Below are positions 50,171-53,063 of a stretch of DNA of 64,000 bases, in pieces. Under the pieces are notes generated by a model that did not search any database, was not told the origin of the DNA, and saw only the letters and a list, made by a program, of their open reading frames with translations. The stretch covers positions 744,001 to 808,000 of the forward strand of contig NZ_CP032152.1 of assembly GCF_003555505.1 (NCBI RefSeq), given 5' to 3'. This stretch comes from Thermosynechococcus sichuanensis E542. Lineage in GTDB: Bacteria; Cyanobacteriota; Cyanobacteriia; Thermosynechococcales; Thermosynechococcaceae. Every line of letters starts with the position of its first letter. The stretch's first letter is position 1. Both the position numbers and the translations under genes were made by a program.

Positions 50171-51061
50171 CTATTCGTGATCGTATTCCTCTTGCTTTTG
50201 CCGCTGCTCAAGGCGAATGGGTTGTGGTTCTTCCCAAGGATCGGCAGTAGGTTCCGATTCCGGCAGTTCTATAGGCATGGCTTGAGCAGGGGGCTTGACT
50301 TGACGCGAGCGGGGATGCTCTTCGTACTCATACTCCTCCTCCTCATACTCCACATACTCCGGCTGGCGACGGCGACGACGGGGAGCGGTTTCCCAATCGG
50401 CTTCGTAATCACTGCGGCTGCGTTGGGGGGGATAGACGGGCGATCGCGCCCCGGAGGGCAATTGATTACTGCTCGGTGTAATGGGTTGATAGTACTCGTC
50501 CTCGTCGCTTTCCCAAGGGGGTGCCCCCAAGCCGACCCGTTCTAAGAGACCCACGGTTAATTGCCGCAGGCGGGTTTCTGCCCCTTCAAAGACAATAATG
50601 CGATCAGGCCCCGTGCTGACAATTTCCTCAATGGGCAACTCGTAGGTGCTAATCAGTTGAGCCGGAATCCAAGGCAAGCCAATAGAAGCCAAAATCAAGT
50701 CTGTAATGTCGCCCGTTTCGGGATCAAACTTGAAGCCCCGTACCCTACCCAGCACTTCGCCGGTTTCGGTGACTATTTCACTATCAATCAGCGTGCTGTA
50801 GTTGTAGGTATTGAGAGCCTCAGTGACATCATCATCATGCTCAACGAGAATGACATCGCCAATTTGGCGAATGCTGTCGAGAAGAATGTAGCGTTGCTCG
50901 CCGGTAAAGAGGGTATTGCGTACCCCCAAGGCCACCACTTGCCGCTGGTCAATATCGACCCAAACCTGATTAATGACGCCTAACTTCCGACCAGTATCAC
51001 GGGTAATTACCTGTGTACCGATCAAATCTGCCCGTTGCAGCAATTGCGCCGATATGGTCAT
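50171..51061 (-). CDS. PRC-barrel domain protein with disordered tail
   Basis: A 296-residue protein from ATG 51061. Two PRC-barrel domains are visible: LIGTQVITRDTGRKLGVINQVWVD and then SEIVTETGEVLGRVRGFKFDPETGDI. The C-terminal 110 residues are low-complexity, rich in Arg, Glu, Tyr and Pro, and likely disordered. PRC barrels occur in RimM, in reaction-centre H subunits and in regulatory proteins. The role here is unknown. A longer frame upstream adds a hydrophobic stretch without a ribosome-binding site. Confidence 0.82.
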   Translation of the reverse strand: MTISAQLLQRADLIGTQVITRDTGRKLGVINQVWVDIDQRQVVALGVRNTLFTGEQRYILLDSIRQIGDVILVEHDDDVTEALNTYNYSTLIDSEIVTETGEVLGRVRGFKFDPETGDITDLILASIGLPWIPAQLISTYELPIEEIVSTGPDRIIVFEGAETRLRQLTVGLLERVGLGAPPWESDEDEYYQPITPSSNQLPSGARSPVYPPQRSRSDYEADWETAPRRRRRQPEYVEYEEEEYEYEEHPRSRQVKPPAQAMPIELPESEPTADPWEEPQPIRLEQRQKQEEYDHE

Positions 51062-51214
51062 GCCTTTGTGTATCCCAATGAATCTTAGTAATACTATAGC
51101 GGCGAATACCAATGGTACGCCAAAGGTGATCGCAGGCGGGATAAATTCAATTTCCCCATGCAATCGGTGCTTCTAGGCTAGCGCATTTTTGCCACACTGC
51201 TCAGTTGAATTAGT

Positions 51215-51685
51215 CTATTCCCCTAGGATGGACTGCGTCAGTGCCATCACAGGCTGCATTAACGGCGCTTCCTCGCCCGAGAGCACTTGATTGACCGCTT
51301 GGGGCAGGACTTGGTACGTCACTTGCGCCACCTTCTCGTCCCTGAAGGCCTTAATGATCGTGCGGTACCACAGCAAGAAGCCATCCCGCAGGGCATCCAA
51401 ATCCGCAAATAACATCGCGGCTGCCGCTAGGCGTAGCACATGCTTGCGATCGCGCCGACACACGGCTGAATAGTCGTGATTGCCCTTACGGAAAATATGG
51501 GGACTTTTGGCGCGCAGTTGCTGCTCCACCTGATCCAAGATTTTCTCTTCAGCATCGCGGATTTTTTCGTAGGCACTAATGCGCTGCTCCGCTGCCGCTA
51601 GATAATTTTTGAGAAATTCTAGTTCCTTGGCGCTGGCGTAGCGACCATCGGCTTCAAGACTGAGTTTTTCTAGCTGACGCAGCAT
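51215..51685 (-). CDS. Phycobiliprotein-like protein, paralogue 2
   Basis: A 156-residue globin-like phycobilisome-family protein. The start ADGRYASAKELEFLKNYLAAAEQRISAYEKI and the segment AVCRRDRKHVLRLAAAAMLF match the family. Cys76-x-Arg-Asp79 corresponds to the bilin-binding Cys-82 region of allophycocyanin. It differs strongly from ordinary ApcA/ApcB. It is a close relative of the next gene upstream (same length, same cysteine position) and third in a run with a V4R protein. See the finding on this operon. Confidence 0.85.
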   Translation of the reverse strand: MLRQLEKLSLEADGRYASAKELEFLKNYLAAAEQRISAYEKIRDAEEKILDQVEQQLRAKSPHIFRKGNHDYSAVCRRDRKHVLRLAAAAMLFADLDALRDGFLLWYRTIIKAFRDEKVAQVTYQVLPQAVNQVLSGEEAPLMQPVMALTQSILGE

Positions 51686-51706
51686 AAATCCTACCCTACC
51701 ACAATT

Positions 51707-52180
51707 CTATTCTGACAAAATTGAACTGCCGAGGGCAAGAACCGGCTGCATGACCCGTTGTTCTTCGGGGGTGAGCAGTTGCTTCATCATGTTCGGCAGG
51801 TACTTGCCATAGGTGGAGGAGGAGGATGCCTCATAGTTAAAGGATTTGACAATGGTGCGATACCACAGCAGGAAGTTATCCCGCAGCAAATCTAGCTCAG
51901 AAAAGAGCATTGCCGAGGCACATAGGCGAATGGTATCCACCAAGTCACGACGGCAGATTTCTGAGCGATCGCCATTGATGAAATGAAAACAGCGGGGATT
52001 TTCTGCCTTTTGCATGGCTTGAATTTTATCCGCCATCATTTCCGCTTCAGCGCGGATTTTCTCATAAGCACTAATGCGCGTCTCTACCGAGGCCAGATAG
52101 TCCCGCAAAAAGTTTAATTCCTCAGGACGAGCATAGCGACCATCGGCAACAACGGTTAAGTGATTCAACTGACGGAACAT
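51707..52180 (-). CDS. Phycobiliprotein-like protein, paralogue 1
   Basis: A 157-residue phycobilisome-family protein with ADGRYARPEELNFLRDYLASVETRISAYEKI, and EICRRDLVDTIRLCASAMLF carrying Cys76-x-Arg-Asp79, the possible bilin site. It shares FLLWYRTI and MQPV.AL..SIL.E with paralogue 2 located 21 bases downstream. The V4R-domain gene lies 45 bases upstream. The pair could form a heterodimer, as alpha and beta subunits do; whether they bind bilin is open. Confidence 0.85.
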   Translation of the reverse strand: MFRQLNHLTVVADGRYARPEELNFLRDYLASVETRISAYEKIRAEAEMMADKIQAMQKAENPRCFHFINGDRSEICRRDLVDTIRLCASAMLFSELDLLRDNFLLWYRTIVKSFNYEASSSSTYGKYLPNMMKQLLTPEEQRVMQPVLALGSSILSE

Positions 52181-52225
52181 AGGGCAACCCTCCCTAGAAA
52201 GTAAATGAACACACTCACCTGTGGC

Positions 52226-52957
52226 TTATCGTTTCACCAACTCCCCTTGGCGCAGGCGTTTTTCAATATCCCGGGCCGTGGCTCCTTCGTTTTGCCAGAA
52301 GGCAGCCGCATCAATGCGATCCTGTTTACCGACGAGAAACTTGCAGTAGGTTTCCCCCATGGCATAGCACTGCAACTCGATACAACTCAAGGGCTTTTGA
52401 ATCAATCCCGTAAAGAAGCCCGCAAAAAGACCAGCATAGATGTAGCAGACCGGCTTACCCACATCCCCCAAGGTGCGTGCCACCACGGAGTCAAAGATAT
52501 TGATGAACATAAAACCATTCTTTTGCTCCGTGAGATCCACTTCCCAGTTGCCCCAGCCTAAGGTTGTAAAGGGCCACCACCACGCCTCAAGGAGAAATGT
52601 CAAAGCACTCTTGCGTAGCTCGCGCTGGTACTCCTGCTCAAAGTGTTGCTTAAAGACAACGGCATCGCGTTTGCCCCACTCTTCACCAATTCTGTACATG
52701 ACGAGGGTAGAGGCAGAGCCAACTTCCTCTTCGAGACCTTCCACTAAACCGATAACAAAGTCTTCTGTCGCTAGGGCGATCCGCTGATCATACCAGTCAG
52801 TAATGCTGCCCCGTTGGTGATCAAATTGCAGATAGTCCCGCAGGCTATAGTGATTCGTGCGCGTCGGATGAGTTTGGTGTAACTGATGGTGATAACCCTG
52901 AGCAGGAGTCATAGCACTAGCACTCCCAGCAGGTCGAGACGGCGTGACAGAAACCAT
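52226..52957 (-). CDS. V4R (4-vinyl reductase) domain protein
   Basis: A 243-residue protein whose C-terminal half is a V4R domain, a small-molecule-binding fold found in proteins linked to bacteriochlorophyll and bilin metabolism. Hallmarks are LVMYRIGEEWG, FEQEYQRELRKSALTFLLEAWWW, YIYAGLFAGFFTGLIQKPLSCIELQCYAMGETYCKFLV. Two Cys near the end (SCIELQC) may bind a ligand or metal. The start is ambiguous: ATG 52957 gives the full frame, but ATG 52912 may be the true one. First gene of the run with two phycobiliprotein-like genes. Confidence 0.82.
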   Translation of the reverse strand: MVSVTPSRPAGSASAMTPAQGYHHQLHQTHPTRTNHYSLRDYLQFDHQRGSITDWYDQRIALATEDFVIGLVEGLEEEVGSASTLVMYRIGEEWGKRDAVVFKQHFEQEYQRELRKSALTFLLEAWWWPFTTLGWGNWEVDLTEQKNGFMFINIFDSVVARTLGDVGKPVCYIYAGLFAGFFTGLIQKPLSCIELQCYAMGETYCKFLVGKQDRIDAAAFWQNEGATARDIEKRLRQGELVKR

Positions 52958-53063
52958 AGATCAGCGAATTGCCCCCTATTGTGCGTTAGGTACTAAGCAG
53001 CCACACTTTTTAGGCTAAAAGATTTTTCAGGGTTGTGACGCCGTACTCCCACTGATTTTTTGT

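What the first reader, a model, noticed from the sequence alone, without database searches (positions are those of the whole stretch)
51215..52957. Operon of a V4R-domain protein and two divergent phycobiliprotein-like paralogues
Three minus-strand genes with gaps of 45 and 21 bases encode a V4R protein and two phycobilisome-family proteins of nearly equal length (157 and 156 residues) that both keep Cys76-x-Arg-Asp79, the bilin-attachment pattern, but otherwise differ from allophycocyanins. V4R folds bind small molecules, often tetrapyrrole-related. The set may be a pigment-handling or assembly module distinct from light harvesting. As I recall, the Synechocystis slr0144-slr0152 photosystem II assembly cluster also contains V4R and phycobilisome-domain proteins, which would make this a reduced version; that comparison needs checking.
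Basis: partly seen in the sequence, partly recalled or inferred. Interest (0 to 1): 0.7.

Follow-up and report, generated by a model that had tools for sequence, protein, structure and literature searches.

The report
Relocated, duplicated bilin-globin and V4R module
Three neighbouring genes of a heat-loving cyanobacterium are a moved and partly duplicated piece of a known photosystem-II-assembly gene cluster, carrying the cluster's only two proteins that keep the pigment-attachment site, so it is a new arrangement of a known system rather than a new system.

Summary
In detail: three minus-strand genes, gaps of 45 and 21 bases, encode a V4R protein and two phycobilisome-family globins (52% identical), both with Cys76-Arg-Arg-Asp79. 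The same genome carries that operon elsewhere, but without slr0149, the bilin-globin (BBAG) that most other cyanobacteria with the operon keep after slr0148. The two window globins are the slr0149 orthologues, moved next to ligA and tandemly duplicated. The window V4R is a second copy of slr0144. Trees place both duplications on the same stem, shared by Thermosynechococcus and two related genera; a fourth genus has a simpler ligA-V4R-globin state. Across 386 cyanobacterial genomes the two families co-occur almost perfectly (53 shared, of 54 and 55). In Synechocystis, Slr0149 co-purifies with Slr0144-Slr0148, and related BBAGs bind bilins with weak fluorescence. Most likely reading: a V4R/bilin-globin subcomplex that works in trans with the operon's products in photosystem II assembly or repair. 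The biochemical role of cyanobacterial BBAGs remains unknown; an A/B heterodimer on a dedicated V4R is a testable but unproven idea.

The parts
52226..52957 (-). V4R protein (V4Rw), second copy of slr0144; putative zinc-site ligands Cys171, Glu194, Cys197, Cys205
   Evidence: Pfam V4R 9e-22; sister clade to the genome's own operon slr0144-type gene; the four putative Zn ligands in 68/68 homologues, aligned to MopR; fold match MopR Z 15.3
51707..52180 (-). Globin B: slr0149-type bilin biosynthesis-associated globin (BBAG), C76-R-R-D79
   Evidence: PF00502 5e-10; B clade with G274, G400 and Thermosynechococcus
51215..51685 (-). Globin A: slr0149-type BBAG, C76-R-R-D79, tandem duplicate of B
   Evidence: PF00502 1e-18; orthologues follow the slr0148-type gene in other cyanobacteria; model pLDDT 86, Z 18 to smURFP and allophycocyanin B
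52958..53063 (-). Intergenic region between ligA and V4Rw with a block conserved in the genus (AGTACGG...AATCTTTTAGCCTAAAAA); candidate promoter region
   Evidence: Alignment of six species; no sigma-70 consensus match there

Best explanation
The three genes are a relocated, duplicated fragment of the cyanobacterial slr0144-slr0149 (pap) cluster. Shown here: the globins are slr0149-type genes that left the operon and duplicated in tandem; the V4R is a duplicate of the slr0144-type gene made on the same stem; the rest of the operon stays at another locus and lacks slr0149. Inferred: A and B are bilin-binding phycobiliprotein-fold globins with phycocyanobilin on Cys76, positioned by Arg78/Asp79. 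The V4R is a zinc-stabilised ligand-binding scaffold that docks them. The set acts in trans with the operon-encoded second V4R, Cys-less globin, 2Fe-2S protein and TPR protein at thylakoids during photosystem II assembly or repair, as a pigment-handling or sensing subcomplex rather than an antenna. A and B may pair with each other as phycobiliprotein alpha and beta subunits do.
For: Operon without slr0149 elsewhere in the genome; only two globins close to this type in the genome, both here. Globin trees: A and B are sister clades nested among the family's slr0149-type genes, 94 SH-aLRT in the larger tree, 91/95 in the careful tree. V4R tree: window V4R and operon slr0144 are sister clades within a 94/94 group, each holding Thermosynechococcus, G274 and G400. 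Simpler state ligA-V4R-one globin in G396. Co-occurrence 53 of 54/55 genomes; a V4R gene near the globin in 46 of 53 genomes examined (counted). All 28 A/B sequences keep C-x-R-D. Purifying selection. Literature: Slr0149-GFP co-purifies Slr0144-Slr0149, thylakoid-located (PMC9880817); the operon's products are reported to stabilise PSII intermediates (PMC4853703); CxRD BBAGs bind bilins, low fluorescence (PMC10151467).
Against: No experiment on these proteins. Only 32 of 65 other slr0149-type rows keep CxRD, and 21 have Trp at the Cys site, so covalent bilin attachment is not a family-wide requirement. The phenotype of the pap operon may be due to slr0150-slr0152 rather than slr0144-slr0149 (PMC10151467). 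PSI association has also been claimed (PMC4853703). The stem support for A+B is good, not decisive.
Confidence: 0.62

Rival explanations
1. The module is a separate bilin- or tetrapyrrole-responsive unit that has left photosystem assembly altogether: the V4R copy and the A/B pair form a light- or pigment-sensing complex of their own.
For: Physically apart from the operon and with its own V4R copy; V4R fold closest to aromatic-sensor domains with all four putative zinc ligands kept; BBAGs fluoresce weakly, so the bilin is probably not for harvesting (PMC10151467).
Against: In every species with the module whose operon was read, the operon left behind has no CxRD globin at the slr0149 position, which suggests A/B still serve it; no output domain or regulator in the module; the BBAG adducts described as photoinactive or photoinert in PMC10151467.
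Confidence: 0.2
2. A and B are minor allophycocyanin-like phycobilisome subunits.
For: PF00502 match and phycobiliprotein fold.
Against: At most 38.7 bits against antenna family cut-offs of 225-280; no PGGNxY loop before the Cys; separated from the genome's own antenna subunits by a 100% supported branch; the Acaryochloris 'apcA' of this type has already been judged probably misannotated (PMC6002478).
Confidence: 0.03
3. Non-bilin structural globins: the fold and motif are kept, but no bilin is attached; the proteins act as protein-protein scaffolds in the complex.
For: 21 of 93 homologue rows have Trp at the Cys position yet keep Asp79, several of them in the operon setting; none of the 51 slr0146-position globins has the motif at that site.
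Against: Every A and B sequence of the module keeps C-x-R-D (28 of 28); homologues with CxRD bind bilins without lyases (PMC10151467).
Confidence: 0.15

Closest known systems
slr0144-slr0152 (pap) operon of Synechocystis sp. PCC 6803
   Same: Same gene families: slr0144-type V4R and slr0149-type globin; co-purifying complex in Synechocystis (PMC9880817).
   Different: Here slr0149 is outside the operon, duplicated, and beside a second slr0144 copy; the rest of the operon stands elsewhere in the same genome.
Cyanobacterial BBAGs (bilin biosynthesis-associated globins; Rockwell et al. 2023, PMC10151467)
   Same: A and B are slr0149-type genes, which that paper places among cyanobacterial BBAGs; CxRD motif as in the characterised BBAG-1 and BBAG-3.
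   Different: Tandem pair of BBAGs with a V4R but without the Fe-S protein and second V4R next to them.
Allophycocyanin / phycocyanin subunits
   Same: Phycobiliprotein globin fold and CxRD; Z 18.0 to allophycocyanin B.
   Different: 17-28% identity in the structural alignments, short pre-Cys loop, far below family cut-offs; separate branch.
V4R aromatic-sensor domains (MopR, PoxR, DmpR)
   Same: Fold (Z 14-15) and Cys/Glu/Cys/Cys zinc-site pattern.
   Different: No AAA+ or DNA-binding domain; 14-18% identity; ligand unknown.

Membership tests
Cyanobacterial BBAG (slr0149 type) | Phylogenetic placement with slr0149-position globins, apart from light-harvesting phycobiliproteins | tested here: met
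Cyanobacterial BBAG (slr0149 type) | CxRD bilin-attachment motif | tested here: met
   C76-R-R-D79 in both; 28/28 in the module. Only 32 of 65 other homologue rows have it, so it is not strictly defining.
Cyanobacterial BBAG (slr0149 type) | Binds bilin, low fluorescence | not testable with these tools
   Shown for BBAG-1/2/3 homologues in PMC10151467, not for these proteins
slr0144-slr0149 (pap) cluster | V4R-A, globin, V4R-B, Fe-S and globin genes together at this locus | tested here: not met
   Only V4R-A and two slr0149-type globins at the window locus; V4R-B, Fe-S and slr0146-position genes are at another locus, L013
slr0144-slr0149 (pap) cluster | Gene products orthologous or co-orthologous to slr0144 and slr0149 | tested here: met
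   Trees; the Synechocystis sequences themselves were not at hand, so naming rests on gene order in other cyanobacteria and published descriptions
slr0144-slr0149 (pap) cluster | Role in PSII assembly or stability | not testable with these tools
   Literature on Synechocystis only (PMC4853703, PMC9145668)
Light-harvesting allophycocyanin/phycocyanin | Passes the curated family cut-off (ApcA, ApcB, CpcB) | tested here: not met
   Best 38.7 bits against 270
V4R domain protein | PF02830 above gathering score, V4R fold | tested here: met
   77.4 bits against 31; MopR, TRAPP and V4R-family folds Z 13-15

The most novel reading that the evidence does not exclude
The BBAG duplication is a second, independent origin of an alpha/beta-like heterodimeric biliprotein: A and B pair with each other, dock on a dedicated V4R copy, and form a bilin-bearing assembly factor that serves the split pap complex in thermophilic cyanobacteria.
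Probability: 0.2. Interest if true: 0.7.

Novelty: new variant of a known kind. Interest (0 to 1): 0.42.

Why it matters
The function of cyanobacterial BBAGs is stated to be unknown (PMC10151467), and in Synechocystis the question is blurred by the neighbouring slr0150-slr0152 genes. In Thermosynechococcus, a main source of PSII structures (my own knowledge), the bilin-globins and one V4R lie away from those genes. Deleting 51215-52957 would test the bilin-globin part alone, and thermostable proteins are good candidates for structure. The joint duplication of V4R and globin on one stem also points to those two as a core contact.

Tried and rejected
Reduced-operon reading: rejected, since the genome has the operon elsewhere. 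Antenna subunit reading: rejected. PRC-barrel gene 50171-51064 as a fourth member: rejected as a core part, since it adjoins the module in most Thermosynechococcus examined but was not found beside it in G406, G274, G400 or G396. Sigma-70 promoter scan: nothing above shuffled expectation. AU tests on whether the single G396 globin belongs to A, to B or outside both: not decided (p 0.145, 0.18, 0.457), so the order of relocation and duplication is open. Wegener et al. 2008, the original paper on the operon, could not be read.

Full report
Observation. The window has the three genes at the stated places: V4R 52226-52957, globin B 51707-52180, globin A 51215-51685, all minus strand, gaps 45 and 21 bases. 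Pfam finds V4R (9e-22) and Phycobilisome domains (A 1e-18, B 5e-10). A and B are 52% identical and both carry C76-R-R-D79. They score at most 38.7 bits on antenna families with cut-offs of 225-280. The three genes are under purifying selection within the genus (dN/dS 0.04-0.15; dS is near saturation in the wider pairs).

The rest of the genome. The window lies in a 2.65 Mb single-contig genome whose close relatives are Thermosynechococcus. It has two globins close to this type, both in the window, but three V4R genes. The other two V4R genes lie at one locus in the order V4R (slr0144 type), a protein X with tryptophan-containing repeats, a phycobilisome-family globin without the Cys, V4R (slr0147 type), 2Fe-2S protein (slr0148 type), TPR protein (slr0151 type), Ser/Thr kinase (slr0152 type) (L013; labels by gene order and published descriptions). 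So the slr0144-slr0152 operon is present, but the position after the 2Fe-2S gene, where slr0149 stands elsewhere, is empty: the 2Fe-2S and TPR reading frames overlap by a few bases.

Other cyanobacteria. Of 386 genomes drawn across the phylum, 54 have a globin of this type (E up to 1e-14) and 55 an slr0144-type V4R (E up to 1e-30); 53 have both (Fisher p about 1e-61, which ignores relatedness). In most, the globin follows the slr0148-type gene. In 46 of 53 genomes whose surroundings I read, a V4R gene lies within about 7 kb of a globin of this type (my count). Two adjacent globins of this type occurred only in Thermosynechococcus and G274 in this sample; a family survey added G400.

History. 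Survey of the family: the Thermosynechococcus genomes read have ligA-V4R-B-A, and those whose operon was read lack slr0149 there; G400 likewise; G274 has V4R-B-A away from ligA and the same gapped operon; G396 has ligA-V4R-one globin and an operon lacking both slr0144 and slr0149; G290, G399, G401, G386, G390 and others have the ordinary operon with slr0149 in place. In the globin trees A and B are sister clades nested among the family's slr0149-type genes (94; 91/95). In the V4R tree the window V4R and operon slr0144 are sister clades, each with Thermosynechococcus, G274 and G400 (parent branch 94/94), with the single G396 V4R beside them. Both genes thus duplicated on the same stem. Whether relocation came before duplication, as G396 suggests, is not settled (AU tests).

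Protein features. The model of A (pLDDT 86) has the phycobiliprotein fold; nearest solved structures are smURFP (Z 18.2, rmsd 2.0 over 124 residues), a small bilin-binding fluorescent protein, and allophycocyanin B (Z 18.0, rmsd 5.8 over 148). A and B lack four residues of the loop before the Cys in antenna subunits. Asp79 is kept in 92 of 93 homologue rows and Cys76 in 69 of 93; 21 have Trp instead. All 28 A and B sequences have C-x-R-D; of 65 others, 32 do. The operon's other globin never has the motif at that site. The V4R model (its first 60 residues unreliable) matches MopR, PoxR and DmpR sensor domains (Z 14-15) and TRAPP/V4R folds. Cys171, Glu194, Cys197 and Cys205 are invariant in 68 homologues and align with a Cys/Glu/Cys/Cys set of MopR; in DmpR three Cys with the same spacing and a Glu bind zinc (PMC7264223).

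Literature. Rockwell et al. [quoted passage not shown] they also note that the cluster is variable and duplicated in some cyanobacteria. Slr0149-GFP pull-down was used to validate the Slr0144-Slr0149 interactions (PMC9880817). The operon (pap) is reported to stabilise PSII intermediates, though PSI links are also reported (PMC4853703). A 2026 preprint reports slr0144-family duplications at the base of thylakoid-bearing cyanobacteria and within Thermostichales (PMC13174344). I found no description of the Thermosynechococcus arrangement in the papers searched, but many papers are not held.

Mechanism. Shown: orthology, relocation, duplication, co-distribution, conservation of the attachment motif. 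Inferred: covalent bilin on A and B; V4R-globin contact; function in trans with the operon products in PSII assembly or repair; A/B pairing. The strongest hint here for a V4R-globin partnership is that both were duplicated on the same stem and stand together.

Verdict. The main value is that this lineage separates the bilin-globins from the neighbours that confuse the Synechocystis genetics.

Noticed in passing
e.g. L053, L055, L057, L060, L064, L084, L099: Many slr0149-type globins outside this family have Trp in place of the bilin Cys while keeping Asp79; this includes copies standing alone and copies in the operon. They may bind bilin non-covalently or not at all.
   Followed up: partly
window 50171-51064: A PRC-barrel protein follows the module in most Thermosynechococcus examined but was not found beside it in G406, G274, G400 or G396.
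   Followed up: partly
window 52958-53063: The region between ligA and the V4R gene holds a block conserved across the genus (AGTACGG...AATCTTTTAGCCTAAAAA) without a sigma-70 match; possible regulatory site.
   Followed up: partly
L152:7924-8407: In one Thermosynechococcus (G402) the operon's Cys-less globin is split across two frames, a possible frameshift or sequencing error.
   Followed up: no
L051 and L052 (G302): One cyanobacterium carries two near-complete copies of the slr0144-slr0152-like operon on two contigs.
   Followed up: no
L018: A contig filed as Candidatus Gracilibacteria carries a cyanobacterial pap operon; probably a mis-binned contig.
   Followed up: no
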